Assembly: GCA_036362985.1 (NCBI GenBank)
Contig: JAYGXS010000004.1
Location: 4,827,105 to 4,891,104, forward strand
From: Ligula intestinalis
Taxonomy: Eukaryota > Platyhelminthes > Cestoda > Diphyllobothriidea > Diphyllobothriidae
Reading direction: 5' to 3'
DNA: 64,000 nt
The translations under genes and the position numbers were made by a program. The notes beneath the pieces are model-generated. The model was given only the letters and a program-made list of their open reading frames with translations, searched no databases and had not been told where the DNA came from. Numbering within the stretch: position 1 is the first letter of the stretch; each line of letters begins with the position of its first letter. Below, in pieces: positions 16,680 to 58,180 of the stretch.

Positions 16680-17134
16680 AGAAGAAGAAGAAGAAACTTA
16701 TAAGAAGAAGAAGACTCGATCGCTGGGACCATATGTTTATTCACCTGATGTTTCGATATCCGTCGCGGATTCGTCATCAGAGACATGGGTAGCAGAAAGA
16801 GGTTAAGCATGCACAGAAGTTTGCAGTATTTATAGGACACAAGCATACAGCAACAATTAACGTTAATTGCCTTCGTGTGCGTGGATTGCTTGTTGGATGC
16901 CACGCAGGCTCTGATCTGTTGAACTTTCATCACGGGCGGTGAGCTCGGGCGTGATGATTGCTCGGCCGTCTGACTCCCCGGTGTTGGTGTACGATGAGGC
17001 GGTGGCCTGCCCATTCCTCAAGGGTCGACTTGCTTTGGCCAAATTGGATCTCTGGATGGAATATAGATTGGGCAAATCGCTGCACTTGTTTATGGATTGG
17101 GGACCCGTGGACCAGGACTCAAGTAGTTCTCGGC
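16680..17134 (-). mobile_element. PLE 3' region and terminal repeat with hammerhead-like motif
   Basis: Continues the 17.1-18.7 kb PLE on the minus strand. It carries an untranslated stretch with a TATAAATACTGCAAACTTCTG block, then CTGATGA (16774-16780), a stem-loop, GAAAC (16750-16754), ATC, then GGTGAATAAAC and a (TTC)n tract. The same order recurs at 36.9, 54.9 and 55.7 kb. The cleavage triplet here is AUC, not GUC. Confidence 0.75.
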
Positions 17135-18680
17135 TCACCCGATTGTCACCTCTTGCGAGAATTTCGGCCTCATTAAATTTGAACGTGTGGCTGGTTCTCG
17201 TCGAATTAGCCGCAACTTGAGAATTGGCATCATTTCACCGCACTGCTGCCGCGTGTTCGGCAATTCGCGTCCTGAGAAGTCTGCCATTTTCTCCGACATA
17301 GTTGCTTTGGCCGCAACTGCACCAGATCCTGTAGACAACCCCAAATGTTTCTTGCCGTGGCAGTGGGTCTTTTGGCTTCATTATCTGATGCCTTATGGTT
17401 GCCTCCGGCCTGTGTGCGACTCCAACTTCAAGTGGTGCGAGAAGATGGCCGACTGCTTCCGATACGTTTTTGACATACGGGATCGAATGCCAAATCTTGG
17501 GGTCGGTGTGCTTTTGTTGGCCAGCTCGTTTGCGCAAGCACCAGTTGACGAAGTTGCGTGGGTAGCCATGCTCTCTGAACACCAGTCGAAGGTATTCTAC
17601 CTCGGCAACTTTGTCTTCTTCTTCGCTGCAGTGCGTCTCAACACGCCGATAGAGTGTTTTTACGCAACTGCGTTTGTGGCTAATGGGGTGGTTGCTGTTG
17701 TAATTCAGTACTTGCATCGTGTTTGTTGCTTTCCTGAATACTTTAGTCTTTAGACCACCACAATCTTTTCGACAAACGAGCACATCAAGAAAGGCCAGCT
17801 GTTTGTGCTCTTCTTCCTCCATCGGAAATTGGATGTCCGGGAAGACGCTGCTGAGACGTTCCTTGAACGTGAGCACCTGATCGCGTTCGATGACGATGAA
17901 GGTGTCATCCACATACCGAGCCCAGAATTTCGGTCTGTGGTGTTGGAAAACCAGCAACTCCAGCCGCTGCAGGTCCACCTCGACTATGAGTCCCGAAATC
18001 GGTGAACCCATCGGTGTCCCCTTCACCTGCTCGTAGATCGTTCCATCAAACGTGAAGTAAGTTCTGAGACAGAACTTCAGGAGCTGTAGGATTTTCGCAT
18101 GTCCAAGGCGATTCTCCGTCTCATTGTATTTGTTTCGTAGGAGTAACTCGACGGTCTCGATTACCAGATCCTGAGGGATTTAAGTAAAAAGAGATTACCC
18201 CTTTAAGTTTCTCCAAGATCTGCGCTGACGAGCAGACCGTGGTCTCCGAATCAGCGGTCAGAAATTTGAGACGCCGAAACAGCTACTTTGCTAGTCCGTA
18301 CGTTGGAGTGCCTTTGAGTGATACGATGGGTCGGAGAGGAGCGCCTTCCTTGCGCACTTTGGGGAGGCCATAGAAACGGGCCAAGGCCGTTTCTTGTGCC
18401 CTCGCAATGCGTCGGTCGGACGGCGTTATTGCACCCGAGTTCTCTAGAGCCAGCAAGGTCGAATTGATTTCGCGTGTCAGCTTTTTCATGGGATTGGTTT
18501 CACAAGGAACATAAAACTGACGATCCTCCAGTAAGTTTTTCACCTTCTGAAGGTAGTCGGTTCTTTCTTATATGACCGCAGAACGTCCCTTGTCGGCTGG
18601 CACGATGACGATGTCCCGATCGGTCTTGAGTGCTCTTAATGCAACGCGTTCGACCTTGGGGAGCAGTCTCCGCGGTAGGG
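17135..18680 (-). pseudogene. Penelope-like element RT + GIY-YIG, best copy in the window
   Basis: Read on the minus strand. DIVIVPADKGRSAVI precedes a TAA stop (18568-18570). ARFYGLPKVRKEGAPLRPIV and SLKGTPTYGLA follow (18283-18543), then a TAG where Trp is expected. A short deletion near 18190-18200 shifts the frame and removes the FDV core of motif A. IPQDLVIETVELLLRNKYNE and the 263-codon frame 17235-18026 come next: KGTPMGSPISGL (motif B, residues 2-13), RYVDDTF (motif C, 37-43), QLAFLDVLV (76-84) and the GIY-YIG domain GVVYRIWCSCGQSNYVGENGR (229-249) with TRIAEH (253-258). A TGA after AAAVR interrupts it; the same frame resumes to the end of the domain, including SRELLESW. The RT is dead, but lesions are few, so it is relatively young. 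The N-terminus is missing. Confidence 0.93.
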
Positions 18681-18699
18681 CCAAAAAATATCAATAATG

Positions 18700-19910
18700 A
18701 CTGTGATGTTGTACTTCATCGCTGGAGGAGGGATGTTCAAAATTGCGCAAAAGTAACAAATTTATAATTGGCGTCTGATGAGTGATCATTTGATTATCAC
18801 AAATTTTCATCAACCTTCTTTTTCGGTGTACAAGCATAAACATTTTTGGGTAGAAATACATCGAAAGGCTGCCTAATGACAAACATCTCCTAGTGCAACT
18901 GTCTGACAGAATTTGTGGTTATAGGTTTAGTGCTTGATTACTGAGCAGTAAATGATCCTGATAAGTACGCAGTGGGGAATCAAGATAAAAAAAATCGCAA
19001 TTGCTCCACGGAACTAAAAACGTAGGTGAAGATTTTGCGAAATGAACTAGAAAGACCAAGAGAAACTCCTATTAGACCAACTCCTATTGCTGTTAGGCGA
19101 CCCTACGATTTCTGACATAAAGAACCGACGTTTTTCTGAAAATAGCTTGAGAAGGGTGTCGGCTGAAGGGGTAAAAGAGGACTCTATAAAATGGAAGCAA
19201 GGCATCTTGTTTTAAGAATCAGTTTGAAACCAGCGACGGCATTGGAAGGCACACCAACGTGAACTTCCAGACAGTACAATTTCCAAGTCAAGAACTGAGG
19301 TCTCTTGCCGGATGTCTGAACGAGAGAATAAAAATGGTTCTTATTTTCCTCTTTTTGAGACCGGAAAAACCTGCACACAGGAATCGCCACCGCTGTAAGC
19401 CATATTCAGACATATTTTTTAGCATAAATACTGACTTATTCCCTCAATAAAAGCCGAATTTCAGATAGAAATTACAAATCAGGTCTACTTCCGCCCTCGT
19501 TATTCGTATAAACGAGCTTTATCCTCTCTTTGGCAGAAATCTGACTGATGTAACCAAAACTAACTCTCCCTCTTTTGGCTGAGACAGCTGGAAGAGAGAA
19601 CCTTGCGGCTAATTTAATGGCAGGTGGAGATCACCCTAATTGTATTGTGAAGCATGCAGACATCAAAATTAATCTTAATGATATCCAGCTTACAAACTGC
19701 AGCTATTGTAGCTTTAGCAGATTGTGGATAGACTAATTACCACCCACTTAGTATTTCCGTACAGGAGACAAATCAGTGCAATTAACGTGATGTCACTCCG
19801 TCTAAATTTTGAAGATCTTTGTCGACAAGCACAGAGCTTTTTCATTTAGCCTGTTCTTCTCACTCCGATTCAGAATGTAAGTTTACATTGCGATTGCCTG
19901 AGTAGAAGCA
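18700..19910. other. no gene seen
   Basis: AT-rich, no motif or repeat partner recognised. Confidence 0.4.
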
Positions 19911-19914
19911 GATG

Positions 19915-20130
19915 CGAACGCCTGGCGTTTCGGATTCCATCGTGAATCCGTCGTCAGAGATAATAGCAGGAACAAGTAACTCATTTTTGCATAGAAAGTT
20001 GGAGTATTTATAGGATATCATCGCTATTCTGCTGCATACCTATGACAATAAACGTCCACTTAGCCTGAACAACCATCACCATAGATATCTACAGATAAGA
20101 GTAATGTACGCGCAAGACATACGGTGCTTC
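19915..20130 (-). mobile_element. PLE terminal repeat fragment with hammerhead-like motif
   Basis: The core 19924-19957 reads CTGACGA, one base, GGATTC/GAATCC arms (perfect 6-bp stem), GAAAC, GCC. The TATTTATAGGATA and AATAAACG blocks typical of these ends follow at 20005-20055. Confidence 0.7.
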
Positions 20131-20214
20131 TAAAACACAGTTAACCTTTATGCACACGCCGATTGTAATAAAAGTGAGAGCGTGGGTCCCATATAGTAAC
20201 TGAGAAAATGCAGA

Positions 20215-20440
20215 CAGGATTGCTAGGATAAGAAGTTTTTGCCTGATGTTTCAAAATCCGTCGTGAATGCATCATCAGAGACAATAGCAGAAACAAGCAG
20301 TTGCCCGCCTGTGCACTAATCGTTAGATAGCCGGCGTGCGGTTCGTGTCCTAAATAACTTTCATCACTCGAGCTCGGCTTGGGCGTGATGATTACTCGGT
20401 CATCTGGCTTTCCGACGCTGGCATTCGAAGACACCAACGG
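20215..20440 (-). mobile_element. PLE terminal repeat fragment with hammerhead-like motif
   Basis: The core 20245-20278 reads CTGATGA, one base, GCATTC/GGATTTT arms, GAAAC, ATC, AGGCA. Further upstream on the minus strand the untranslated block with GTGATGATTACTCGG complement (compare 16950-16975) is present. Confidence 0.7.
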
Positions 20441-20560
20441 CAGTAAGATAGCGATTGTATCCCATAAATGCTGCAAATCCCTGTGTCTCTGATGATGTGT
20501 CTGCGAGTGAATCCAAAACGTCAAACGAATAAAGTTCTCGTTCCAGCCATGGAAATTGTT
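20441..20560 (+). mobile_element. PLE terminal repeat fragment, opposite orientation
   Basis: CTGATGA at 20489-20495 is followed by a stem remnant, AAAAC (instead of GAAAC) and GTC (20520-20522), then ACGAATAAAGTTCTCGTTCC. It forms a head-to-head pair with the minus copy ending at 20440. Confidence 0.65.
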
Positions 20561-22480: not shown

Positions 22481-22481
22481 G

Positions 22482-25435: not shown

Positions 25436-28384
25436 CCAATAAACGGTGGCCGATATCTTCGATCGATATTGATTAGTTTTCGTATGTTTCCAAAAAACTT
25501 ACCTGCTTCCAAATAAATAAAGATATCCAATCGATCGAATTTAACTGTTTGTGAATAATAACCGTGTTTTTCAGCTTTTTAGGCCCCTGTTATAAAATAT
25601 CTGCCTTATGCATAGTTGAATTCTTAAAGTACTTCAGAATCATTTTTTTAGATTATCAGAAAGAACTCCTATCTATTCCGCGCTTTTTAGGCAAGACTAG
25701 ACGCTCTTATCCCGTCATCAAATAAAGATAGATAAATGAGCGCCAGTCATCCGCATTATTTGACTGATTTTCATAATGAGGGCGTAATTTATTTGGTAGT
25801 TTGCAGCGTTAAGACACGTTCCACTAAAGGGAATCGTGTGAAGTTCAGACAAAAGGAGAGCGTTGTAGACTAGGTACAAGAGACGAGAAGTTTTCAGCGA
25901 CCTGTACGATGTGTGATGGAAAGGCACAACCGTTCAACTGTCGAGTTATTTCTATCTCAGTTGGAAGGTATTCAGGGTCATTTTGGGCCATGGCAACTGC
26001 GAATATCAGACAAATTTCTAGGTTCGGCAATTCCGAAAGCATTAACTACCTTCGAATCTGATGCTCACAAGGATTTCCGCCGGACATAACTTTTTTTTCG
26101 TCTGACATAATGCTTAGGGAGTTACCCTGCTCCCCGGAGTGTTTAGTTTCAAATCCTGGTGGATGTCATTAGGAAAAATAATATGTACTCTTTCATCGGC
26201 TTTACTTTGCAAACAATGTAGGAATATGTGCTTTCGGTTGGCATCCATGTATGTTGGGAGATTGGGAAAGTCAAATAGGCGCTAAGTGTACTACTAGTTC
26301 TCATTATATGTGCAGTATGCTTTGAGTCGTTTGTGGACAGGCATCCACAGTGTTGACGGAAGCCAGGAAACAAACGCGAACGATTCCTTGACGTTTGCTA
26401 ACTGACCAAAGGCCGGGATAGTGCCTAAAATTGACGAAGTCTTAGGGAAAATTGCCCCCATCGTTCTTGAAGCAATTGTTCATTTCGCCTACTTGAAACC
26501 TGATGTTCGCTCCCCACACTTGACCTACAAACATGGCTCACAGCCCACCCTACTTGCCCCCTCCCACAATCTCAATGACCTCAAAATGCCGATCTCACGA
26601 TGCGGAGACGTGACAACACCGAGTATTAACCACAAAACATAAAGGAAAACTTTCGAATTCTCATATTTTCATTTTCTATGTAAATGTCTAGGCCCGATGA
26701 TGAGTTACTGAAAACATGCGTTTGACAAATTCACTTTTCAAGTTAAACGTGGTAATATTCGCAGAAATTATATGCATATTCGTTTGGCCTCTCCAATTGA
26801 CCTTAAACTAACGGTTGAATATTCAGTGCATATGGATGAAGTGTAAAAGTACAGTTCCTTTCTTACTTTTCTGATCGTAAGTAGCAGCATTAGAAGTTCA
26901 TGCATCAAAGGACGACGTTTAAAATTGAAAGTTTTTCGGGCATGCAGTTTTTGGTTTTGAGCCCTGTCTGCCTCGTACTTGTCGCATCTAATTTCGCTGA
27001 TATAACTTTGTTTCACTCGGACATCCTAGCCAGTGCAAACTAGCAGGCCGACACAGTAGTTCCATTATCTAATGCACTTTTTGGATGTGATATAGGGCAG
27101 CCTTCGCAGCCACATTTAAGGCCTTGCGTGTATGTGCTACTCATAAAGACTGAAAACGCTGGTTACACGGTTAACATGGAGAAAAACGAAATGCTAGGAG
27201 GTCGTTAGTGCTACTATTGTACTGCCTTAAATTAGTAGGTTTAATCATTGCTACTGCGATCTTCAGGTGCGGTTCTGTATGGGAAGAGAAGAATTGAGAT
27301 ATCAAGGGGAAGGAGTAGTGTATTCTGTACAGAAATGGTAGAGAATAGATTTGAGGAAGTTGGCTATCGGAAGAGGGTGCAGCCATCCGCAAAAGTGTTG
27401 CGTCCAAAGTGTGAGCGTGACAGGCGCCACAATAAGGTCCTGTGAGTCAATCACAGAAAGATGATTAGCCAGACTGGATTGGCGTAGACGGGTTAGTGCA
27501 TTCCCACATGCTAATTACCCTGTGATTTTGAGCGTTGGCGCAGTTTGCGACACATTTGATTGGCTGTCGCATAGGCGGGCCGAAAACTTCAATCACGTGA
27601 CCTCATGCGTGGCTTGGTGACGAAGGTGGAAGTTGGCGCAAGCTCATTATAGAGAACTAAGAAACGAAACACATTGTCCGCAGGCAGTTGTGGAATAACC
27701 ATTTGACCTTTTGAGTCGCCGAGCAGTTCTTCGAGAATAAACTGCATCCTGATCACTGTTCATTGCTTTCATGACTGACCTATATCTCTCTGAGTTAAAA
27801 TAGTGAAAGGATCACATAAAACAATATTCACACAAGTGACAGGGAGGTGCGAACCATACGCAGTGGCTCAGCCGGTATTGGCTGGCTACGCCCATGGAAA
27901 GAGAGCTCCGAGCGTGGGCGTGCAGTTTCTGATGAGGGATGGACGACCCAACCACCCCAAAATCTTTCCCGATGACCGCTCTTCCTTCTTCTATAGTTGA
28001 CAGTATTATCCACAATTTCTAAATAACTCCGATTTCAAATAACTGTTATCCTGAAAAGAAAAATCTTCGGAAAATAGAGTTATACTTGTGAATTTTCGAG
28101 CAGGTAGCAGTTGCTCGTCGTCAGACTAAATGAAAGGTGGGGGGCAGGGAACGTCGTACTAGAGGCTTTGGTGGCAGAGGTTACAACGAACGGGGTGGGA
28201 TTTGGCGGGAGGGTTACGGTGACGTGACTCCTGCGGCGATAGGTTGTCCTGATGAGGGGAGGGAGGTGTTAAGGTTTGGATAGTTGGTCACGTGTTCCGG
28301 GGAGGGAGGGGGGGATTCAGAATCAATGAAATCCTACTTGACCGAGCACGGACAGCCTGTTTTTGTTTCAGGCTGGGTGCAGGT
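25436..28384. other. no gene seen
   Basis: Mostly AT-rich. Positions 27450-27780 are GC-richer with ATTGG boxes, a TATAGAGAAC and an AATAAA (27741-27746), an LTR- or promoter-like order, but no partner repeat was found. A Gly/Arg-rich frame at 28141-28281 is not supported by splice sites. Confidence 0.35.
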
Positions 28385-28690
28385 TAGTCGACCATGCGCG
28401 AAAACCGGCACAGTTTGAATCAAGCTCTACGTATCTGTTAATACCAGCCGGGCTCGAGGGCCAAGCTGCGACGAATTCTCTCGCTTGCCTCATATTAACC
28501 ATGGCGATCACCTCAGTACCATCCCAACTGAATCGGTGATCACACTCAAGGTAGTGTGCAAATACGAGTGATGAAGTGTCCCGTCGGCGAATGGCTTACT
28601 CATATTCCTTGATGCGAATCTCAAGACGTCGGCCAGTTTGGCCAATCCAAACACAAGGGCTTGTTCCCGGGTGGACTATGCCGTTTGGCA
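28385..28690 (-). pseudogene. Penelope-like element GIY-YIG fragment
   Basis: On the minus strand one continuous frame reads CVWIGQTGRRLEIRIKEYE, a TAA stop, AIRRRDTSSLVFAHYLE, CDHRFSWDGTEVIAMVN, RQAREFVAAW and INRYVELD. It covers YIG (as WIG), the Arg/Glu-rich helix and the C-terminal part; the conserved Glu of the EFLEAW motif is Ala. The RT and GIY half are missing. Confidence 0.82.
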
Positions 28691-28723
28691 GCAGAACGGT
28701 AAGGGAGGAGGGGTGGGTGAAAT

Positions 28724-29600
28724 GTCATGAGACTAGTGAAAGAAAAACGATTTCACACTCTGGGGGGTCTGTCGTCTGCCAGACACACAGAGAAGAAAAA
28801 TATGACGCCGATTTTGTGCATTTTGTCACTGTCAGCTGCCACAGTCAGTGTAAAAAACCTCCTGCCAGACTTGACAGGTGACCTCAGCTGCACATATGAA
28901 CGGAACTGCCAGACCTGGCGCTCTCGCCTTAGGCTCCCTAGGTGTGCCCACTAAACGCAAATGGTCCAATCGTGCAGGAGGCTATGATGCTCCGTCTTCC
29001 AGCTTAACATCCACCAGACAAATACTGTATTTCACAATTCGAACTTTCAAACGACCCTTTTTCCACCATCAATGGCAGTCTGCCCGAAGGGTGTTTTTTG
29101 CATTTCTTAAAGTGCAAAGCTATCAAACTTGAAAGTGCTGGCGTCATTCGGAATAGACAGCGGTCTTTTGCACGACTATACTTATCGCCAAGGGGCTGAT
29201 ATGAACTTCTGGTCAAAGACTTAATAAAACTCAGGAAGAAGTCCGGTGTTTTGTATGGTATTGTATTTGGCGGTTAACCTGGCCTTGAGATTGTACAGTT
29301 CGGATTGAACGAAATCTGGAATCGTGCACACGAGAGCAGATGCTGGGTGCGCGGTGTTATAGCGCAGCATCGCCAGCGGCCGCGCACACCTTGGAGCTCA
29401 ATTCACCCAGCTGGCGCCCGCATACACGACTCTGCACGGCACCGGTTGTTATTTAGCCACTGACTGCTGTAACTGTCACATTTCTGGCCGCAGCATTTTG
29501 TCGCTCATAATGAACTCCTGGAGGATTTGGTAAGCCCAAAATCATATGGTTCCGATGATTTGTCAGCCGCCTTCTCCTTACTCATAGTCAATCATGGAAA
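28724..29600 (+). repeat. ~0.9-kb dispersed repeat, copy 1
   Basis: Collinear with 30000-30953 over almost its full length: GAGACTAGTGAA, TTTCACACT.TGGGGGG, TTTTGTGCA, CACTGTCAGCTG, CGGCAGTCTGCCCGAA, CAGCCGCCTTCTCCTT. It has no long frame conserved in both copies. Class unknown. Confidence 0.8.
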
Positions 29601-29629
29601 TCGAAATTTAGCTGTCATTTTTCAAACAA

Positions 29630-29950
29630 CTTTCTCAATACAAGCGAACGTGCGAGTTCCAGGATGTCATTAAGAAGAAGATTCGATTGCTGGATTCGAA
29701 TTTCCGTTGCAGAATTTCCATCGCGGATCCAGCCTCAAAGACCATAGTAGAAAATGGCAATTCATTGAAATGAAGTCGCAGTACTTATAAGATACAGTCA
29801 CTATTGCACACTTATAATAATAAACGACTCGTCTATCGAGGATTAATTGCTTGATAGTCCGTGTGCGGGTCATGACTTGCTGAACGTTCATCATCCATGC
29901 TGGACTTTGGCACAAGTGATTGAAATCGAAATGCTTTATAGTGGACAACG
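29630..29950 (-). mobile_element. degenerate PLE terminal repeat
   Basis: On the plus strand: a tail box (CAATACAAGCGAACGTGCGAG), AAGAAGAAGATTCGATTGCTGG, a damaged stem (CAGAATTTCCATCGCGGATCC), ACTTATAAGATACAGTCA and AATAAACGA. The CTGANGA core is destroyed. It lies between the two copies of the 0.9-kb repeat. Confidence 0.6.
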
Positions 29951-29999
29951 GGCGAGTCCTTCTATCGAATAAGCATGTATTCCCATGGCAGGTGAGGGG

Positions 30000-30953
30000 G
30001 GATATGTCACGAGACTAGTGAAGAAAAAACAATTTCACACTTTGGGGGGACTGTCCTGTGCCAGAGAATAAAAAATGACGTTGCTTTTGTGCACGTTGTC
30101 ACTGTCAGCTGTCGTAGTCAGTATAAAAAAGACCCAAACCGACTTGGCTACCTCTGACAGATGTTTTCAGCTGCACATATTAACAGAGCTTCCAGATGTT
30201 ACACTGTCGCCCTCGGCTCCCTTGGTACGCCCACTAAACACAAACGGTCCAATCGTACCTGAGGCCTACGATGTTTCCTCATCGAGCTTAGAACCCACCA
30301 GGTGAATACTGCGTTTCAAAATCCGAAATTCAGAACAGCCTCTTTCCCCCGTCAACGGCAGTCTGCCCGAAAGGTCTTTTTTTGCATTTCTAAAAGTGCG
30401 GAGCTGTCAAGCTCGAATATACTGGCTTCAATTGGAATAGACAGCGACTTTTGTCATCAGTAGAGGTACCAGCAAGGAGTTGATTTGAAATTCTGGTCAA
30501 AGGCTGAATAAACATTAGGGGGAAGACTGGTGGTGTGTGTCGTATTCGGCGCTTTAACTGGCCGTGGAATTGTGCATGTCGAACTGAAGGCGGATTGGAC
30601 TCGCACATACATGAGCAAGAGCTGGATGTGTGGTGCTATGGTGGATCACCATAAGCGGTTGTCCACACCTTCGAACTGGATCCCGCGCTGATCTCCTCAG
30701 CAGTCAGGATAATCACTTATGCCAGAAACAAACCACTCGATCTAGTGATCTGTACTTCACCTACAGGGCCCTGCATGGCATTGGTTTTATTTAGTTGCTG
30801 ACTGCTGTAACTGTCACTTGTCTGGCTACAGCTACTGTTTCACATAATGAACTCCTATATGATTTTGGAAGGCCGAAATTAAAACAAACAAATGGCTCCT
30901 ACATTCTGTCAGTCGCCTTCTCCTTCAGTCATATTCAATCTTGGAAAGACCCA
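30000..30953 (+). repeat. ~0.9-kb dispersed repeat, copy 2
   Basis: Partner of 28724-29600. It ends directly at a PLE GIY-YIG fragment (30965), which copy 1 lacks. Confidence 0.8.
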
Positions 30954-30964
30954 CCGCTGGAGTC

Positions 30965-31670
30965 GTTTAACGGATCTGGTGCAGTGGTGGACAAAGTAAT
31001 TACGTCGGAGAAACCGGGAGATTACTCTGGACGCGAATGTCCGGGCACGCAGCGGCAGTTAGGAAGAAAGACACTAACGCCTAGATTACTGCTCGCTCGA
31101 AGGGACCCGGCCATATTTTCGAGTTGAACGAGGTCGAACTCCTCGCAAGAGGTGACAGCCACGTGAGCCGCTGGCTGCTCAAGTCATGGTTCTCAGGCCC
31201 CAGTCCATCACTAAGCGCAAAGATTTGCCCTTCTCATAATGCGTACTGAGACATATTCTGAACAAAAGATTCAATCACGTGGGAAGGACCGGACACAATG
31301 ACAGCGAGCATGATTGGGACGCAATTATAAAACCCGCATCCGACACGGACAACGAAATCACAGTAATTAATGAGTCGACAGAGAAGTTTCAAGCCATTAC
31401 CGCACCGATTAAGAGCCCAAGCGACGTTACAGGAGCTGATAATTATGGTACCCGTGCCGATTTCCTCTAAGAACTATCAATACTGAGCAACCTTTGCATT
31501 ATCAACCCTGCCTGGGCATGTCTCATATTATACTACAGTTACCTGTGATTAAGGATTCTCGACAGAATCCGAAACGTCAGGAAAATAAAATTCCATTAAC
31601 AGTGATCTATTTTCTTTTTCCTCTTCTAAACTGCTTCCTGGAACTCGCATATGCGCTTATATCGGCAGTA
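30965..31670 (+). pseudogene. Penelope-like element 3' part: GIY-YIG, UTR and hammerhead-like motif
   Basis: The frame starting near 30970 reads WCSGGQSNYVGETGRLLWTR, MSGHAAAVRKKDTNA, a stop, then HIFELNEVELLARGDSHVSR and WLLKSW: the endonuclease of the 17-kb lineage from just after GIY to its end. Downstream, 31543-31578 holds GGATTC/GAATCC arms (perfect 6-bp stem), GAAAC and GTC, followed by AGG and AATAAAATTCC, and at 31625-31670 the tail box (CTGCTTCCTGGAACTCGCAT). The RT is absent. Confidence 0.82.
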
Positions 31671-34035: not shown

Positions 34036-34639
34036 GGCAGTTGGCACGGTACCAGTCTATTGTGGGTGACACCACGGAAACTAAACCCCCAAAATTCTGC
34101 AATACGAGAGCGGTGGTAACGGGGGTTAGACATTAGAGGCCTAACGGCGGCGGAGGAGAGAAAATAAAATTAATATAAGAAACAATACGGGAAATGAAAG
34201 ATAAAGCTATCATAAAAATTGTTTTCATCATCTTCCAAAGAAGACGAAGAAGAAGGTTGCCGAAGGGCAACTTTCCAGCAGAAGTCTGCCACACTTAACA
34301 GAGCCATAGACCTTCATCCTGCTTACCAGGCGGTACGCATACGGCGCGAGTCAGTTCGAACAAGGCCAGCAGGACGGTGAAGAAGCCACAAGCGTGGAGA
34401 AGAACCGAGATCAGAGGAAGATAGGAGAGGGGTCGGACAGGGGCCAGGTGACCAGCGTGGAACGCTACCTCACCGCTACCGGGCACACGAGGTTGACAGG
34501 ACCTCATGCGGGCAGCAGCAAGTGATTAGTCCGTCGGTGGACGAGGGACAGGCCATTAAGCGCACTGAATTGCCAACAATTATTACAGCCGCAGAGGTGA
34601 CTAAGGTCACACGAGCCCCCCAGCGGTCAATCTCACGGA

Positions 34640-34860
34640 GAGTCAGCAGCAAATAAGCAGGTCAAAGTTGGTGCACTGAGCACGGATATAAGAACAGGCA
34701 TGCAGCAGGGCTGAAACAGTCCCAGCACGCAGGAGCAACCACCACGTTACTCTGAGGATGGAAACAAGCGAAAGTTCGAAACGTCAGTCCCGATATAACT
34801 CGGTCCATATCCTTGAACCTTCTTCTTCGTCTTCGTTGAGAGATGAAGAAAACACTAAAA
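34640..34860 (+). mobile_element. PLE-type terminal repeat, second subfamily, with hammerhead-like motif
   Basis: 34752-34785 reads CTGAGGA, T, GGAAA...GTTC, GAAAC, GTC, then AGTCCCGATATAACTCGGTC. The same order occurs at 58066-58180. The end resembles the first subfamily only in the ribozyme-like core; the flanks differ. Confidence 0.6.
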
Positions 34861-36471: not shown

Positions 36472-36789
36472 TCGCCCTGAAACCTATTTATGAGGACCAC
36501 AGTCACCCTGCTGGCTACTGCTAAGTACTGTAGGCAAGTCAGCTGTATTACACTCGAAAGTCAATGGACACATCCCCTCCATGTGTAGCCTACAAGAGTA
36601 CGAATATTCATCTCTTTACTTGACACTCTGTCCTTTAGAATCGCTGAACGCAGTGGAGCTACTGTGCCTGGAAGCATTTAAAACACACTGTACCGGATTC
36701 AATAGTTTGTAGACCAAGTGATCTCGCCCCTTAATGCAACAGAAGATTATTAGTAGTTGTCGGAGCAGAAACAGAAGTGGGAGTATAAG

Positions 36790-36791
36790 TG

Positions 36792-36862
<71 letters not shown>
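36790..36862. repeat. (TAG)n microsatellite
   Basis: About 24 near-perfect GTA/TAG units, placed exactly where PLE ends carry their short (AAG)n tract. Confidence 0.95.
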
Positions 36863-36874: not shown

Positions 36875-37110
36875 GAAGAAGAAGAAGACTCGATCGCTGG
36901 GACAATATGTTTATTTCCCTGACGTTTCGATATCCGTTGTGGATTCGTCATCAGAGACATGGGTAGCAGAAAGGTTAAGCATGCACAGAAGTTTGCAGTA
37001 TTTATAGGACACAGTCATTGCTGCAAGCATACAGCGACAATTAACATTAATTGCCTTCTTGTGCGTGGACTGCTTGTTGGAATCTTGGTGTCTTCTTCTT
37101 CTTCTTCTCA
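36875..37110 (-). mobile_element. PLE terminal repeat with hammerhead-like motif
   Basis: Minus-strand core 36921-36954: CTGATGA, C, GAATCC, ACAAC, GGATATC, GAAAC, GTC, then AGGGAAATAAACATATTGTC. Very similar to 16740-16870 including TATTTATAGGACACA and AACATTAATTGCC. Confidence 0.85.
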
Positions 37111-38859: not shown

Positions 38860-38960
38860 CGGTGGAACAAGAAATTCGTTAGCATGACGTTTCGGACATT
38901 CACTCAAATCCATCATCAGATAAAGAGGCAGAGAAGGGTATAGGATTGCTCAGGTGTTGT
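38860..38960 (-). mobile_element. PLE terminal repeat fragment with hammerhead-like motif
   Basis: Core 38886-38919 on minus: CTGATGA, T, GGA...TCC arms, GAAAC, GTC, ATGC. AGACCCGATCGGTGGAACAA on the plus strand is the usual GATCG/GGAACA boundary. Confidence 0.75.
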
Positions 38961-39945: not shown

Positions 39946-40284
39946 TGTAGTGACTAGGCCATTACGAGCCTGTCACAATTGGTGGCCCCCGAATGTGACG
40001 TGGACACCTGCAAGTGAAGTTATAATCGTCCGACCAGACAACATCCTTATCTCTTAGTATTCCGACAAAGACAGGCAACGGGCTGTTGGCTAACTCTAGC
40101 GTAGCCGCTGAAATTGCCGCGTCTGGCCGGTTAGGGGCAGACGTCTTAACCAGTGAGCCATTGAGTTCGATGGTTTGCCGGTTGTTGATCGGGAGTATAT
40201 AATATTTGTTTGTACACTGATCTATTTCTCAGGATTAGCCCATCCTGGGTTGATGCTTTTGCAAATTGGATCAACCCTATCCTT

Positions 40285-40385
40285 TCCTCTACTTACGGAT
40301 AAGAATGAGGATATGAAACATCAGCCTAAGAAATCTCCTGTTCCAGCGATCTTGCCACCTTCTTCGCAAATGCTAATGTGTTCGT
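40285..40385 (+). mobile_element. degenerate PLE terminal repeat
   Basis: GGATAAGAATGAGGATATGA AAC-ATC-AG then CTCCTGTTCCAGCGATCTTG, as at 45430-45465. The CTGANGA core is not preserved. Confidence 0.45.
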
Positions 40386-41754: not shown

Positions 41755-42377
41755 GGCAGGAGCCTCCTTGGTAGTGGACTTGCATACAACAAGCCGTAGG
41801 TTTTTGTCATACGGCAAACGTGAGAAGGGGACTTTTATGAGTTGGTAAAACTGATTTACCAAAAAAGGATTTTGTGAAAAATGGTAAAAAAAGTCGTTTA
41901 AGTTTGTTCAAATAATTTAAGGTGGTGGCTATATGTCGACAGCGTTGGGCGCATAAATCAAAAAAAAACAAATCGAGCTCGAATTGAGCTCGAATCGAGC
42001 TCGGAGCGCTGTCGACAAAGCTAGAAATGTTGAGTTTTATTCCAAAAAATTACTTTGCCAAAAACCCAGTAACAAAGGGCTTTTTTGAAGACTTTTTGTA
42101 ACATTAAACAGAAATATAGGGCTGTTTGCATACAATATAACTATCCCAACCCGAACCTAACCATTATTCTTACCCTAACTCCTAACTCTCACCCTAAACC
42201 TTACCCTAACCCTTAACCTAACACTTTCTCTTACCCTAACCTTTACCCTTACCCTAACCTCTAACCCTTACCCTAACTTTAATCGTGCTCGATTCGAGCT
42301 CGAATCGAATTCGAATCGCTGTCGACAAACCTGGAAACATGGAGTTTAATTCTGCCACTACCAAGGAAACTCCTGCC
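41755..42377. mobile_element. non-autonomous TIR element, 623 bp
   Basis: Terminal inverted repeats 41755-41777 and 42355-42377 match at 21 of 23 bases (GGCAGGAGNNTCCTTGGTAG core). The flanks CAATCCTG and AAATCCTG suggest an 8-bp target duplication with one mismatch, hAT-like in length. Inside are two related ~60-bp subterminal blocks (about 41985-42045 and 42289-42352) with AATCGAGCTCGAATCG-type palindromes and CGCTGTCGACAAA, and a CCCTAA-rich centre. No transposase frame is present. It interrupts a repeat whose uninterrupted copy is at 60.7 kb. Confidence 0.75.
42140..42285 (-). repeat. degenerate CCCTAA (telomere-like) array
   Basis: About 15 CCCTAA/CCTAAC-like units with irregular spacing inside the TIR element, so interstitial. 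Confidence 0.8.
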
Positions 42378-43309: not shown

Positions 43310-43680
43310 CCATCTTCAAGGAAGAACTACAATGATTTGCCGTGGCAACGGAGTCCCTAGTTTCGGCCTCATCGCTTCTACCCCGCGCCTATTCCAAAAT
43401 CTGATTTCCAAGCTTCCACGCCAACTGGCGATGAGATGAGGGGCGGGGGACATGGCTGATGCAGCCGCTACACTAACTCCCCCCCCCCAATATACGGTAG
43501 AATTTATGCGCTGACCAGTCGGAATTCTATTTTGCTTCATTGCATATACAATACAGTCTGGTCTGGTCTGGGGGACACGGAAGTGTACGACCACTCAGTA
43601 GTTAGGTGGGAAGAACTGGAGTATACCAAATGAATGATTGAAACGGCGTTGAACTGTACAGAGATCTGCGCGCAACCATT
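43310..43680 (+). repeat. composite repeat, copy 1, 5' module
   Basis: Collinear with 44525-44915: GATTTGCCGTGGCAAC, AACTGGCGATGAGATG, TAGAATTTATG.GCTGACC, GGTCTGGGGGACA.GGAAG, GAATGATTGAAACGG. Class unknown; both copies run into a PLE GIY-YIG fragment at the same point. Confidence 0.75.
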
Positions 43681-43945
43681 AGGCATCAGGTTTTGCGCCT
43701 AAAGGACCCATTGCTTCTGCACGAAACATCTGGAGTCGCTTCTCACATGTGGTGCAGTCGCGGGCGAAGCAAATGGAAACTGGAAGATAGCTATGGATGC
43801 AAATTGCTGAACACGCGACAGTAGTGCAGAGACCTGACGTGAATTCGTGGCTCCTTCGACGGGACCCAGTCACGCCTTCAAGTTCGATTAGGTTGGAATT
43901 CTCACGAGAGGTGCCAATTGCGTATGCCGCGGGTCACTTGAGTCA
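43681..43945 (+). pseudogene. PLE GIY-YIG remnant (composite copy 1)
   Basis: With frame changes it reads LKDPLLLHETSGVASHMWCS, then an EDSYGCKLLNTRQ-like stretch and an RLGWNSHER.. continuation, a heavily mutated version of the KDPLPRQET..GVVYRIWCSCG segment at 17.3 kb. Confidence 0.6.
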
Positions 43946-44524
43946 TGGCTGATTATGATATTTGACCATCGATTTCGATTATGTCCACCATATGTCCAAG
44001 AGCAGGGATGCTGACTAGAGACAGAGACGAGATTTGAGTGAAATAGACGCTCAACTGTCCACGTCACTCTAAACCCTTATCTGTTTGAACCGGTGACAAG
44101 ACAGAGTCAAGATGACCGAACGGGTTTGGACGTAGGCCACTTTCGACGATGCAGGCCAGAACACTGCCTAACGTTGTCTTCAAAGACTGTAGTTTTTTGC
44201 GCTAATGCTACCACACTATTTACCCTCACCCACCTTCAGTGGGTGTCAAGGCAGACTCAGGGAAACCGAGGCTGGTACTGCTACTGCTATTTTGACTACT
44301 ACCAACTAGGAGTTTAGCTAAGTATTAGCAATACAGGCCCTTTTTCTGACATTCGTATTTTTCAGAGTTTACGCTGATCATAGTCAACGCTGGGTTTCAT
44401 CTCCCCTTGATCTCGCTGAGGAGGGTGAATCCGGGTTTAAGCTATTCCGAGTAAATGCATGTTTGATGTCCGGTATTGCGTTAAAGCATGTAAAGTGCAG
44501 TTACATTAAACCCACTTACTGTCC

Positions 44525-44915
44525 ATCTCGCAGTGAGAAGTACGCTGATATGCCGTGGGAACATAATCCGTAGTTCGGCCCCATCACTGCTCTCACCCCC
44601 CATACCCAAATCTACTATTCAAGCCTCTACGCCAAATGGCGATGAGATGGGAGCAATGACTGACGCGACAACCGCACCAACGCCCCTCCCTTGTAGGGTA
44701 GAATTTATGAGCTGACCGCTAGCCAATCTAAATTATGTTTTTGGTTCAGCGCATATACAGTGCAGACTAGTCTGGGGGACATGGAAGCGGATGACAACTC
44801 CTTAGTTAGATGGGAAGAGCTGGAGTATATCAAATAAATGATTGAAACGGACGTTGAATTGTACAGAACTCTGCATGCAGACTGGAGGCGACCATCAGGC
44901 GTCAGGTAATGGAAA
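44525..44915 (+). repeat. composite repeat, copy 2, 5' module
   Basis: Partner of 43310-43680. Confidence 0.75.
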
Positions 44916-45520
44916 GAAAGGACCCACTGCCGCGGCAAGAAACATCTGGCGTCGCTTAACCCATGTGGTGTAGTTGCGGGCTGGGAACAGGAAGACTGCG
45001 CTCCATGCGAATTGCCGAACACGCGGCAGCAGTGCGGCGAAATGACGCGAATTCGCGGCTTCTTCGATGTGACCTAGCCCAACCTTCAAGTGCGATTAGG
45101 TTGGAATTCTCACGAGAGAATTGACAATCGCGTTAGCCACGAGTTACTTGAGTTTTAGTGGTTTACAGTGCTCCCAGTCTAAAAACTATTGTAATGATCG
45201 CCTCCACGTAGTTTTCGGTACTGAAACTTGGTTTGGCCAAAGTAAGCAGCCACTCGGGGAGCGCGCAAGTGGACACGCTTTACAAAACAAGGGCCGGTGG
45301 CCGAGCACTAATCACGCCAACCTCCAACGCGGGTGATTACATTTCAGCAGATAGCGACCCGCATGACGGCCATCAAGCCCACTCTGTGGTTATCTCTGAT
45401 GAGGGAGCCAAACGAGAACCCGAAACGTCCTGCCAATAAACTTCCTGTTCCAGCGATCTTATCTTCCACTTCTCACCATCAAGCAGTTAGCGCACCAGAG
45501 GACAGTCACACTCGATGAAG
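44916..45520 (+). pseudogene. PLE GIY-YIG remnant, UTR and hammerhead-like motif (composite copy 2)
   Basis: The frame reads ERKDPLPRQETSGVA, a stop, MWCSCG, then SMRIAEHAAAVRRNDANSRL. The YIG segment is lost. Downstream UTR blocks match 16950-17110, and the terminal core lies at 45396-45429: CTGATGA, GGG...CCC arms, GAAAC, GTC, with CCAATAAACTTCCTGTTCCA next. Confidence 0.75.
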
Positions 45521-45599: not shown

Positions 45600-45690
45600 G
45601 TATGCGATGCTGCCTCTGAAAATGACTTCGGGCTGGAGTCCAAAACGTCAGGCAAATACGGTTCTCATCGCAGCGATTGCGTCTAATTTC
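45600..45690 (+). mobile_element. additional PLE terminal-repeat fragment
   Basis: 45615-45649: CTGAAAA, T, GACT...GGAGTC arms, CAAAAC, GTC, AGGCAAATACGGTTCTC. Two core positions are mutated. Confidence 0.5.
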
Positions 45691-50080: not shown

Positions 50081-50084
50081 TAAT

Positions 50085-53310: not shown

Positions 53311-53312
53311 TA

Positions 53313-54167: not shown

Positions 54168-54168
<1 letters not shown>

Positions 54169-54199
<31 letters not shown>

Positions 54200-54201
54200 G
54201 G

Positions 54202-54247
<46 letters not shown>

Positions 54248-54288
54248 GGATGATGATGATGATGATGAGGACGATGATGATGATGATG

Positions 54289-54355
<67 letters not shown>

Positions 54356-54791
54356 GGATGATGATGATGAGGATGAGGATGATGATGATGANNNNNNNNN
54401 NNNNNNNNNNNNNNNNNNNNNNNNNNNNNNNNNNNNNNNNNNNNNNNNNNNNNNNNNNNNNNNNNNNNNNNNNNNNNNNNNNNNNNNNNNNNNNNNNNNN
54501 NNNNNNNNNNNNNNNNNNNNNNNNNNNNNNNNNNNNNNNNNNNNNNNNNNNNNNNNNNNNNNNNNNNNNNNNNNNNNNNNNNNNNNNNNNNNNNNNNNNN
54601 NNNNNNNNNNNNNNNNNNNNNNNNNNNNNNNNNNNNNNNNNNNNNNNNNNNNNNNNNNNNNNNNNNNNNNNNNNNNNNNNNNNNNNNNNNNNNNNNNNNN
54701 NNNNNNNNNNNNNNNNNNNNNNNNNNNNNNNNNNNNNNNNNNNNNNNNNNNNNNNNNNNNNNNNNNNNNNNNNNNNNNNNNNNNNNNNNNN

Positions 54792-54838
<47 letters not shown>
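54169..54838. repeat. (GAT)n microsatellite with assembly gap
   Basis: GAT/GAG triplets on both sides of 400 Ns (54392-54791). The poly-Met, poly-Ser and poly-Ile frames across it are artefacts. True length unknown. Confidence 0.97.
54392..54791. other. assembly gap (400 N)
   Basis: A run of exactly 400 N, probably a placeholder or estimated gap in the repeat. Confidence 1.
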
Positions 54839-55038
54839 CAAGACTTGTGTTTGCCTGATGTTTCGACGCCCGTGGCGTATTATTCATCACAGACATCAGC
54901 AGAAAATATTGGCAGAAATGGGTGATACGTGTACAGGAGGTTGTAGTGTCAATAGGACTCAGTCATTACTGCACACGTATGACAAATAACGACAAGTAAC
55001 GCTAATTGCCCCCTTGGTCGTGGATTGCTTAATGAACT

Positions 55039-55151: not shown

Positions 55152-55157
55152 AGCGGC

Positions 55158-55307: not shown

Positions 55308-55600
55308 AGCGTGAAAATTATGGCTGTTCAGGAAAGCGACAAGATGCACGTACCAAAATTTAACAGGAACCAGCCAAACAGCCACAAAATGCAATTGGGG
55401 AAAGACGCTTTATCGGCGTGTTGAGACGCATTGTAATGAGCCCGAAGACAAAGTTGCCGAAACGCAATATCTCCGACGGGTTTCCAAACGAAATGGTTAT
55501 CCGCGCAATTTTGTCAACCAATGCATGTGCGAACGAGATGGGCAACAAAATCGCACCGACCCTTAATTTTGGCGGAATATTATGGATGAATCTGAATCAG
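55251..55600 (+). pseudogene. Penelope-like element RT C-terminal fragment
   Basis: After the shared UTR block, the frame reads RRVETHCNEPEDKVAETQYL, RRVSKRNGYPRNFVNQCMCE and DGQQNRTDP then a stop: residue-for-residue related to the 17.5-kb PLE (RRVETHCSEEEDKVAEVEYL, GYPRNFVNWC). It lacks motifs A-C and the endonuclease. Confidence 0.85.
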
Positions 55601-55634
55601 TCGTGGCCTCTTCTCATTGATACAAAAGTTATTG

Positions 55635-55870
55635 TCACTACAAGCGAACATGCGAGTCCCAGTAAGCAATTGAGAAGAAGACTCAATCGCTGGGACAATA
55701 CATTTATTCGCCTGACGTTTCGATATCCCTCACAGATTCATCATCAGAGACACGACCGTTTCTGCTACTGCTTCCTTCTCATGTCTCTGATTATGAATCC
55801 GCGATGGATGTCGAAACATCATGCGAATAAACGTATTGTCCCAGTGATCGAGTCTTCTTCTTCTTCTTCT
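55635..55870. repeat. large palindrome of two opposed PLE ends with two hammerhead-like cores
   Basis: The minus core 55714-55747 (CTGATGA, T, GAATC..GGATATC, GAAAC, GTC, AGGCG) and the plus core 55787-55820 (CTGATTA, damaged) face each other. The arms (about 55677-55747 and 55785-55862) extend through the AATAAA, GGGACAAT and GATCGAGTCTTCTTC blocks to (TTC)n. Confidence 0.88.
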
Positions 55871-55949
55871 TCTTCTAAGTCATTGTCACCTTAGCTAAAT
55901 GTTGTTTATGTGTCCAAGATTGCAAACGTAACGCAATAACACAGGTCAC

Positions 55950-56115
55950 TGTGCCTTGAGGCGATCAGGTTTGTGAGCGAGGAACGCCAGCATTATCTAT
56001 TCTTAGCCAACCTGCCGAGCCCTGCGGCAGTTGCCCTAAGGATTTTACCCGTCTGATGACCATACATTTCCCCACAGCCCCGCGAGACCTTTGTGGACAT
56101 ACGCAATATCCAACT
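55950..56115. repeat. dispersed repeat, copy 1
   Basis: GTGAGCGAGGAACGCCAGCA, TATCTATTCTTAGCCAACC and CTGCGGCAGTTGCCC recur at 57370-57435. Confidence 0.55.
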
Positions 56116-57100
56116 TTTGAGAGGCGCACATGCAGGACATGTGGGAATTTCGATCGCAGGGGCAACTTTAGACCTTACAGTTCATGTTTTGCTCACCGGA
56201 ATAAAGTTGTTGGTTTGTTGACGCGTCTGACGTGAGTGGCTATGTGAAACATTTAGCGGATAAACGAGCAGCCAATAAAAATGCTGGATGAACGACCAAC
56301 GGACTAGCAGGCGTTTCAGCGTCTTTATGTATTTTATCATTATAATATGATTTAAGATTGTTTTTTAAATTATTCAATGAGAAAAATGATGGTTATAAGG
56401 TCGTCTACTTAAAATTAAACGTGGTCAACCGTACCGTTCTGGAATTAGTTTTGTACCTCAGTGACCTCGCCCAAGGTCAGCGAACACTCCCCAACGTACG
56501 TGCGCCCGTTGTTAGATCACATGCGCAATGACTAACATGAACCTTCATATATGTTTTCTTCCAGTTTTCGGGACCTATTCACGACAAAAAACATTCAATC
56601 ACCCGTTAATATATTGGACGGTCATGCTGCACGTTTATTTGGTAATTCCTCCGCTAAGTTTTGTACTATTTAGTTCATCTAGCAACCCAATGAATTTATT
56701 CCGGTGAGCAAAATATGAATCGGAATTCTTATCCCAGAATTCTGACTTTTTCAAATTTTAGATGGAGGTCACCCTCCATCTCGGCCGCGTATATCATTAG
56801 GCTGATTTTGATTCTTACCCAGCTAATTCACAGCAGTTGCCATGGAAAGACAAATGTTACTATATTGCCGTCTGCTTAGTCCCACCGCCCCAGAACCCAT
56901 TCGAATTTACCAGAAACACCGGACTAGCTGCTGACACGCACCATTAAACAATGTCCCGCGCAGGTCCATTTCGAGCTGGCTAGCTGTCTGAACCAGCAAC
57001 ATCCTCACACTTCGACGAGCGTCACTCGTATCCCCCTACCCCCCCCCTCCCACCTCTGTCACCTCCCACACACATATATATGAGCAAATGAACGTTATGG
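56116..57100. other. no gene seen
   Basis: AT-rich, then a C-run (57027-57050) and ACACATATATAT. No motif recognised. Confidence 0.4.
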
Positions 57101-57104
57101 ACAA

Positions 57105-57265
57105 AGCCCAGGGAGACTAGAATGGCCATTTATGGCTCAATATAATGATCAACCCGCCCTACTCAATCCGAGGTGTTACAGTTCCTGGGAATTGTAGCCG
57201 TGACCAGTTGGCCGGAAGTTCAACGCTCTAACCATTGAACCATGGACACCTTTTCCAATGGGTTT
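57105..57265 (-). repeat. degraded tRNA-derived SINE
   Basis: The minus head CATGGTTCAATGGTTAGAGC keeps the A-box region; the B box is mutated. GACTAGAATGGCCATTTATG marks the tail as at 51207. Confidence 0.65.
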
Positions 57266-57354
57266 CGATCTAGACCATTAAGAATTGTAGATTGACGCAC
57301 ACCCAAGTAAGCTGATGTTGACGAGCCCAAAACCGGAGACTTTGTGCTCTGGAA

Positions 57355-57540
57355 CAGTCAACTCGCCTGGTGAGCGAACAACGCCAGCTTTATATATCCT
57401 TAGTCAGGTCGCCAAACCATGCTGTGGTTGCCCTCTGTGTTTCATCATCACTGATCTGTGCATGTGATTAAACTCCAGCCCCATAGGCCGGTGAGGGTTT
57501 AGTGGATCTACGCAACTACCGACAGGGCAGCGTTATTCAT
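57355..57540. repeat. dispersed repeat, copy 2
   Basis: Partner of 55950-56115. Confidence 0.5.
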
Positions 57541-57959
57541 TTTAACCCATGAGTTAATTGCGCTTACGTGATGACCGACCATTTAGACCAGCCTCTGTGA
57601 GCATTTTTTCGTCGGCATGGTTCATCGCTTCTCATGTTTTGCTGCCTCACCTCAAAAGTTGGCCACAATTTCGACAAAATCGCCGTCGAACCTATCGTAT
57701 TTGATAATATCCAACATTCTCTCCATTTCAGGAAGAGTTTATCGTGTGAACTTTTACCTGCCCGTTCGTTACTGACCACATTTGGTTTCCCGGAGGTTGG
57801 CTGCTGGTGGGCTGGCGTGATCTTCGTCCCTACTGCGGTCAGCGCAGTTGTAGGCGAGTCAGTATGCTTGCTGGCCTCCCCCACGTCACTCGGCCGGCTG
57901 ATCACTCGCTGCTGTTCACTTGAGTTGTTCTTTGTTTCACGGCTGCGACGTTGAGGCCG

Positions 57960-58180
57960 TGTTTGCTGTTGGTCGCGTGACCTTTAATGCCCAACACCGG
58001 TATAATTTGAGGCAAACGGCAAGGCGTACTGACTCAAGACCACCAGACTCAACTAACACTCAACTCTGAAGATGGAAGCGAGAAGGTTTTTGAAACGTCA
58101 GTTCAAATATAATCTGGTCCATGAGCCCGCCTCCCCTTGTTCTTCCTTTCCTTTGGGAGATGATGAACGCAACTTCTACT
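57960..58180 (+). mobile_element. PLE-type terminal repeat, second subfamily, with hammerhead-like motif
   Basis: 58066-58099: CTGAAGA, T, GGAA...TTTTT arms, GAAAC, GTC, then AGTTCAAATATAATCTGGTC. Stem I (AACT/AGTT) is four Watson-Crick pairs. Flanks match 34700-34860. Confidence 0.65.

What the first reader, a model, noticed from the sequence alone, without database searches (positions are those of the whole stretch)
16740..58099. Hammerhead-ribozyme-like core in about 17 PLE terminal repeats
Seen: copies at 16750-16780(-), 19924-19957(-), 20245-20278(-), 20489-20522(+), 31543-31578(+), 34752-34785(+), 36921-36954(-), 38886-38919(-), 45396-45429(+), 55714-55747(-), 55787-55820(+) and 58066-58099(+), plus damaged ones near 10750, 29700, 40300, 45615 and 54857. 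Nearly all have the same ~34-base layout: CTGANGA, one base, a stem-loop of ~18 bases, GAAAC, GTC (sometimes ATC/GCC). All four bases occur at the N of CTGANGA (T in most, C at 19.9 kb, G at 34.7 kb, A at 58.1 kb), exactly the unconstrained position 7 of the hammerhead. Known: PLE terminal repeats in several animals carry hammerhead motifs. Inference: these are hammerheads or recent relics.
Basis: partly seen in the sequence, partly recalled or inferred. Interest (0 to 1): 0.86.

Follow-up and report, generated by a model that had tools for sequence, protein, structure and literature searches.

The report
Stemless hammerhead ribozymes in tapeworm retrotransposons
Many scattered copies of a retrotransposon in a tapeworm genome carry a tiny RNA motif that looks like a self-cutting ribozyme and overlaps the start of the element's own gene; this kind is known, but one large subfamily has an unusual base pair in its core.

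Summary
In detail: the 12 listed copies are at the stated places (4 of the 12 carry core lesions), as are the five damaged ones (one by eye only). They are minimal type I hammerheads with no stem III (GAAAC joined directly to GUC) in Penelope-like elements (PLEs) of a Spirometra-type tapeworm. This class is known from PLE terminal repeats, so most of the finding is a new member of a known kind. Rfam misses the copies; identity rests on stem covariation, a held-out covariance model and copy number: 6,892 strict cores genome-wide against 19 for the reversed pattern. Three points go further. (1) The motif overlaps the predicted start of the PLE gene, so cleavage would cut the start codons off; this geometry is published for one lizard PLE. 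(2) A degenerate codon position that the ribozyme needs is held, while hammerhead position 7 is free. (3) 3,646 exact copies carry A3-U8 in place of the core pair C3-G8; window copy 31.5 kb looks like their relic. Natural U3-A8 is published; I saw no A3-U8 report in what I could read, but the primary PLE papers were not held. Cleavage was not tested, and monomer fold predictions disfavour the hammerhead.

The parts
16741..16786 (-). HHR copy, core CTGATGA..GAAAC, NUH = ATC; TATAAA 54 nt upstream; 3' of PLE RT/EN coding
19918..19963 (-). HHR copy, C7, NUH lost (GCC); 6-bp stem II; TATAAA 55 nt upstream
20239..20284 (-). HHR copy, NUH = ATC, 6-bp stem I, weak stem II; directly 3' of PLE EN tail
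20483..20528 (+). HHR relic, G12 to A
31539..31584 (+). HHR relic GTGATTA with strong stem II: by its sequence a window member of the A3-U8 subfamily (now G3.U8)
34746..34791 (+). HHR copy, G7, family B (METSESSKRQ frame), 65 nt 3' of family B C-terminal coding
36915..36960 (-). HHR copy, exact core and GTC; TATAAA 52 nt upstream
38880..38925 (-). HHR copy, exact core and GTC, compensated stem I pair (A-T)
45390..45435 (+). HHR copy, exact core, stem I mismatched at the junction; overlaps end of PLE match
45610..45655 (+). HHR relic, 5-bp stem I, second copy 220 nt from the one before
54851..54896 (-). HHR relic, C3 to G, NUH = ATC
55708..55753 (-). HHR copy, exact core and GTC, 5-bp stem I; best model score
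55781..55826 (+). HHR copy, G8 to T, NUH = ATC; head-to-head with the one before
58060..58105 (+). HHR copy, A7, family B, 4-bp stem I
10746..10791 (-). HHR relic 3' of PLE EN coding; TATAAA 36 nt upstream
40283..40328 (+). HHR relic (CTACTTA..GAAACATC)
29640..29820 (-). heavily degraded terminal-repeat relic, recognised by eye
16866..18714 (-). PLE RT plus GIY-YIG coding, broken; piece 17235-18179 is 85% identical to a Spirometra protein (P0002)
20300..20431 (-). PLE C-terminal coding
30893..31443 (+). PLE endonuclease coding, 5' of HHR 31545
34285..34686 (+). family B PLE C-terminal coding, 5' of HHR 34752
44858..45418 (+). PLE coding, running into HHR 45396
55315..55611 (+). PLE coding, 5' of HHR 55787
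10832..11184 (-). PLE coding, 5' of HHR relic 10752
1..70 (+). separate complete type I hammerhead with its own stem III (cut after GUA by my reading); not a PLE copy

Best explanation
The motifs are minimal type I hammerhead ribozymes without stem III, encoded at the junction of terminal repeat and reading frame of Penelope-like elements in a Spirometra-type tapeworm; many of the copies are relics. Shown here by sequence: the conserved core, covarying stems I and II, a fixed 19-base spacing, one unpaired extra base between A9 and stem II, and overlap with the predicted start of the PLE protein. Inferred from the published class: two motifs in one multimeric transcript pair through the palindrome ACGU to make a shared stem III, and cut after GUC to release a unit-length RNA. 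Inferred here: because the predicted start codons lie 5' of the cut and the next methionine of the predicted protein is residue 104 (P0169), cleavage would turn a translatable RNA into one that cannot be translated from its normal start, that is, into template. Also inferred, by eye: many copies are probably 3' ends of 5'-truncated insertions, since similarity fades shortly 3' of the motif; in the lizard element reverse transcription starts 111-118 bp into the frame.
For: Window excess over shuffles. Stems I+II on 16 copies: 8 of 10 pairs change on both sides, 0 of 500 shuffles reach this, all slid registers lower; on 62 non-redundant copies covariation 0.340 against 0.205 shuffled, 0 of 500. 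Held-out model: 7 of 8 at E below 0.01. Genome: 6,892 strict cores against 19 reversed. Position 7 differs from T in 2,365 copies, U16.1 in only 479, although U16.1 is the third base of an arginine codon CGT and free for the protein. Flank-only search, with the core not scored: 19 hits at E below 0.05 show A13, A14, U16.1 and C17 in 19 of 19, position 7 as T12 C5 A2. Of the 21 PLE N-termini printed, from 30 hits, 17, several of them nearly identical, carry M..KRQ or KCQ near their start, and P0228 has the same spacing with KRL. Published class: passages in PMC6155905, PMC7761336, PMC8490949; PMC11167929 main text.
Against: No cleavage data. Rfam finds none of the copies (two stretches alone). 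Of 9 copies folded as monomers, 6 put the core box into the rival hairpin and none forms the full hammerhead stem I. In the same flank-only set other core positions are less steady: C3 12, U4 16, G5 15, A6 15 and G8 only 11 of 19, with 7 T. On 62 copies one measure, the number of pairs with both-side change, is not above shuffles (55 of 500; for stem I alone 81 of 500). In 23 of 62 copies stem I is 2 bp or less. 19924 has lost the cut site. PMC11167929 reports that the lizard ribozyme cut only with protein present, that cutting was not needed for insertion in vitro, and that RNA-seq showed no ends at the cut site. The start codons are gene predictions. The 62-copy set was found with the model and partly chosen by core pattern, so only its stems count as evidence.
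Confidence: 0.88

Rival explanations
1. The conserved boxes form an ordinary RNA hairpin (CTGANG pairing with CGTCAG), for example a protein-binding stem-loop, and the hammerhead resemblance is a by-product.
For: The two boxes are complementary: 84.7% of cells pair in 62 copies, and 6 of 9 minimum-energy monomer folds use this hairpin.
Against: Covariation is not clearly above shuffles: paired cells 178 of 500, covariation score 42 of 500, two cells with a change on both sides in 62 copies; on the 16 window copies that helix has none. It does not explain the constant GAAA box and A9, the covarying stem I, or the free position 7, which it would pair.
Confidence: 0.05
2. The motif is kept only because it encodes the first residues of the PLE protein (MM..PKRQANK).
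For: The motif is read in one frame: lysine at the same codon in 16 of 16 window copies, followed by R in 10, H in 5, G in 1; predicted PLE proteins begin there; the fixed spacing keeps the frame.
Against: G12, A15.1 and U16.1 are third codon positions, yet are constant in 14, 16 and 15 of 16 window copies, which were partly chosen by core, and in 17, 17 and 19 of 19 flank-only hits. U16.1 differs about 5 times less often than position 7 genome-wide. Stem I lies partly in the leader and covaries.
Confidence: 0.05
3. All copies are dead fossils: once ribozymes in an ancestor, with no cleavage in the present animal.
For: 4 of 12 listed copies have core lesions; the PLE frame at 16.9-18.7 kb contains a stop.
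Against: Identical exact cores recur at many loci in the 100 places listed, and predicted PLE proteins of 786 aa start in the motif in a related worm, which points to recent spread of some lineages.
Confidence: 0.3

Closest known systems
Minimal / variant type I hammerheads of Penelope-like elements (Cervera and de la Pena 2014; Lunse, Weinberg and Breaker 2017; primary papers not held, known through passages of PMC6155905, PMC7761336, PMC8490949)
   Same: Location in PLE terminal repeats, missing helix III, type I order of parts, expected dimeric action.
   Different: Host is a tapeworm; overlap with the gene start and the A3-U8 subfamily are added here. Whether those papers already contain such variants could not be checked.
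Poseidon PAc element of Anolis carolinensis (PMC11167929, main text read)
   Same: [quoted passage not shown] here 28 nucleotides run from A9, the first base of the second AUG, through the cut base.
   Different: Different host phylum, and at least a different element; PAc has experimental cleavage, assisted by its protein; nothing was tested here.
Natural hammerheads with U3-A8 (Perreault 2011, PMC3088659, section 8 read, other passages seen)
   Same: The core pair 3-8 is replaced by another Watson-Crick pair.
   Different: Here the replacement is A3-U8, in thousands of copies of one element family.
Metazoan retrozymes with complete type I hammerheads (PMC7229834, passages)
   Same: Same core; one complete hammerhead lies at window 1-70.
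   Different: The PLE copies lack stem III and several sit beside RT/EN genes.

Membership tests
Hammerhead ribozyme (type I) | Core CUGANGA and GAAA at the junction | tested here: met
   Exact with NUH in 8 of the 12 listed copies, one more with GCC; 6,892 genome copies
Hammerhead ribozyme (type I) | Covarying stems I and II | tested here: met
Hammerhead ribozyme (type I) | Stem III with A15.1-U16.1 | tested here: not met
   No loop between GAAAC and GUC, so it cannot close within one motif; possible only in a dimer. Absence of helix III is the trait of the PLE minimal class
Hammerhead ribozyme (type I) | Rfam covariance model above gathering score | tested here: not met
Hammerhead ribozyme (type I) | Hammerhead is the predicted minimum-energy fold of a monomer | tested here: not met
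   0 of 9 copies folded form full stem I
Hammerhead ribozyme (type I) | Loop contacts between stems I and II | not tested
   -
Hammerhead ribozyme (type I) | Self-cleavage after NUH | not testable with these tools
   -
PLE minimal hammerhead (stem-III-less) | Type I core without helix III in PLE repeats | tested here: met
PLE minimal hammerhead (stem-III-less) | Cleavage as dimers | not testable with these tools
   ACGU palindrome present; G16.2 is A in 5 of 16 window copies
Penelope-like element | RT plus GIY-YIG endonuclease in one frame | tested here: met
   Pfam RVT_1 and GIY-YIG in one frame, both below the curated cut-off; the 120 listed of 1,049 homologues are named Spirometra or Sparganum, most with PLE-type RT domains
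Penelope-like element | Terminal repeats on both sides of one copy | tested here: inconclusive
   Same-strand motifs at 19.9/20.2 and 16.7 kb flank the RT/EN, but the N-terminal coding between them was not found

The most novel reading that the evidence does not exclude
Thousands of these elements carry a working hammerhead whose core pair is A3-U8 instead of C3-G8. The C3 to A change placed a start codon on the catalytic strand (A3-U4-G5), and G8 to U kept the pair. In both core classes the ribozyme then acts as a switch: an uncut RNA is messenger, a cut RNA is template without a start codon.
Probability: 0.33. Interest if true: 0.68.

Novelty: new variant of a known kind. Interest (0 to 1): 0.48.

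Why it matters
The role of PLE hammerheads is described as unknown (PMC7761336, passage). The overlap of ribozyme and gene start, now seen in a tapeworm as well as a lizard, makes a concrete and testable idea: cleavage decides between messenger and template. The A3-U8 subfamily offers a natural test of how far the catalytic core can change, with C3-G8 relatives in the same genome as controls. A practical point: the Rfam models missed the copies tried here.

Tried and rejected
Rfam with relaxed thresholds on the window and on two short stretches, and at gathering score on seven genome stretches, recognised no PLE copy. One miRNA-like match at 55.7 kb (E 0.0078, below its gathering score) reflects the head-to-head inverted repeat. 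CpG decay as the reason for ATC variants: CpG is only mildly depleted (0.89), so it is not claimed. 49001(-) was rejected (E 0.18; no flank-profile hit). An upstream-flank profile printed no hits, and the downstream one found 13 of 16 copies at E up to 10, 11 of them below 0.05. Searches for related PLE DNA in the viral and prokaryotic collections gave nothing. My first stem I register was wrong by one column and was replaced. RNAcofold did not single out the hammerhead dimer. Paper searches that paired hammerhead with tapeworm, Platyhelminthes or start codon, and Spirometra with Penelope, listed no report of PLE hammerheads in tapeworms; only the listings were seen for most of these.

Counts not obtained because the machine was busy: C3 with U8, U3-A8, changes at U4 and at G12. 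So the argument for compensation at 3-8 is one-sided: A3 with U8 is 3,646 (control 6), A3 with G8 260 (control 12), A3 with A8 or C8 318 (control 25), but C3 with U8 is unknown. A3-U8 may be one founder event; thousands of copies are not thousands of events. The tool calls its counts of repeats lower bounds.
Full report
OBSERVATION. The pattern CTGANGA-N10..30-GAAAC occurs 10 times in the window against 0.84 expected in shuffles, nine of them with exactly 19 bases between the boxes. Of the five damaged places four are matched by pattern and by the model built with them; the one near 29700 is recognised only by eye. One further relic lies at 32091(-).

HOST AND ELEMENT. A 314-residue frame at 17235-18179(-) matches RVT_1 and GIY-YIG, both below the curated cut-offs, and is 85% identical to a Spirometra erinaceieuropaei protein (P0002). 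Penelope elements make up about 10% of two such genomes (PMC8166898, passages). PLE coding lies upstream on the same strand, ending at most 176 nt away, in 6 of 16 copies, and family B coding ends 65 nt upstream of 34752.

IDENTITY. The layout is type I without stem III: GAAAC is joined to GUC. On 16 copies (29700, 32091 and 33616 left out) stems I and II change on both sides in 8 of 10 pairs; 0 of 500 shuffles reach this and every slid register is lower. A register without the bulge is weaker. On 62 copies the covariation score is 0.340 against 0.205, 0 of 500, but the number of pairs with both-side change is reached by 55 of 500 shuffles; for stem I alone these are 0 of 500 and 81 of 500. 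The 62 come from 77 rows: 61 of 68 model matches in fetched loci (one palindromic duplicate, three repeats of the same places and three gapped matches left out) plus 16 window copies, thinned to 63, less one palindromic row. A model from 8 copies finds 7 of 8 held-out copies at E below 0.01 and misses 40289; these copies are related, so this shows family membership, not independent discovery. An extra unpaired base sits between A9 and stem II: the base after it pairs with the last base before GAAA in 57 of 62 copies, the extra base itself in 5 of 62. The rival hairpin between the two boxes does not covary above shuffles, but 6 of 9 monomer minimum-energy folds use it and none forms the full hammerhead stem I; this is the strongest computed result against the reading. 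A dimer could behave otherwise, but the dimer folds did not single out the hammerhead either.

RIBOZYME OR PROTEIN CONSTRAINT. In one frame 16 of 16 window copies have lysine at the same codon, followed by R in 10, H in 5, G in 1, and 13 of 16 have a methionine codon within the core box or at A9. Predicted Spirometra/Sparganum PLE proteins start there, for instance P0169 with MMDSSRNPKRQANK: 17 of the 21 N-termini printed (of 30 hits; several nearly identical) carry the motif near their start, and P0228, from an unnamed organism, has the same spacing. Some predictions start a few residues further upstream (P0226, P0231). In the whole genome position 7 differs from T in 2,365 copies and U16.1 in 479, against 6,892 with both as T at spacings 15-25. 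U16.1 is the third base of an arginine codon, so protein constraint alone would leave it free. In a search that used only the downstream flank, 19 hits at E below 0.05 (10 in the window, 9 in 20 stretches taken at even steps) show U16.1 and C17 in 19 of 19, G12 and A15.1 in 17, U4 in 16, G5 and A6 in 15, C3 in 12, G8 in 11 (7 T), and position 7 as T12 C5 A2; of the 9 outside the window, 6 have both boxes recognisable, 2 (one palindrome) only the second, 1 neither. The profile was built from window copies.

A3-U8 SUBFAMILY. Five of the 62 copies have A3 and U8, and 3,646 exact copies exist in the genome (control 6). A3 with G8 occurs 260 times (control 12) and A3 with A8 or C8 318 times (control 25). 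Of the 37 rows whose letters were shown, by my reading 8 look like members of this subfamily and the rest like C3 to A changes in other copies. In the listed rows position 7 is C 45, T 50, G 3, A 2 (hand count of 100). In the five fetched copies the frame reads M(T/I/S)K followed by a residue pattern ending NPKRQ or NPKRH, so the start codon sits on positions 3-5. Position 8 is then a third codon position and position 7 a second one; position 7 departs from T in half of the listed rows, while A3 copies without U8 are at most 578 against 3,646. This fits a ribozyme better than a protein constraint, though subfamily history could also produce it. C3 with U8 could not be counted. Natural U3-A8 is published (PMC3088659 section 8); library searches for the pair names with hammerhead found nothing for any pair, so they say little. 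The window copy 31545 (GTGATTA, strong stem II) looks like a relic of this subfamily.

DENSITY. Twenty 10-kb stretches of contig C1 hold 15 distinct places at E below 0.01 (16 rows, one palindromic duplicate), against 16 in the 64-kb window, so the window is about three times denser. Scaled up, this suggests tens of thousands of places in the genome; it is a rough figure from one contig.

MECHANISM. Reviews describe this class as minimal hammerheads in PLE repeats that may act as dimers, with unknown role. In the Anolis PLE the frame also begins at stem II, the cut needs protein in vitro, and insertion does not need the cut. I infer that the predicted start codons, 5' of the cut, are lost on cleavage (next methionine of P0169 at residue 104), and that a cut RNA is template rather than messenger. 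A TATAAA lies 36-55 nt upstream in 4 of 16 copies, so the motif could be near the 5' end of a transcript. None of this was tested.

VERDICT. The class is known; the gene-start overlap repeats a published geometry in another phylum; the A3-U8 subfamily is the part that may be new.

Noticed in passing
window 1-70 (+): A separate, complete type I hammerhead with its own stem III (best Rfam match HH9, 24.6 bits, E 0.095, below gathering score), retrozyme-like, at the very edge of the window. Its flank could not be fetched.
   Followed up: partly
window 55673-55861: Two motif-bearing repeats head to head with 23 bases between the arms, 87% complementary; pairs in the same arrangement occur in L010, L029 and L030.
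   Followed up: partly
window 42172-42277: Degenerate telomere-like CCCTAA array of about 17 units inside the window.
   Followed up: no
window 28715-30546 and 43551-45118: Two tandem duplications with periods near 1.28 kb and 1.2 kb, overlapping or next to PLE fragments.
   Followed up: no
window 36788-36862 and 54168-54838: Trinucleotide arrays beginning shortly 3' of motif copies 36921(-) and 54857(-), perhaps at the ends of PLE insertions; the second contains a 400-base gap.
   Followed up: no
window 5591-6906, 9179-10242, 14899-15432, 28290-28706: Fragments of more distant PLE families in which I found no clear hammerhead downstream by eye.
   Followed up: partly
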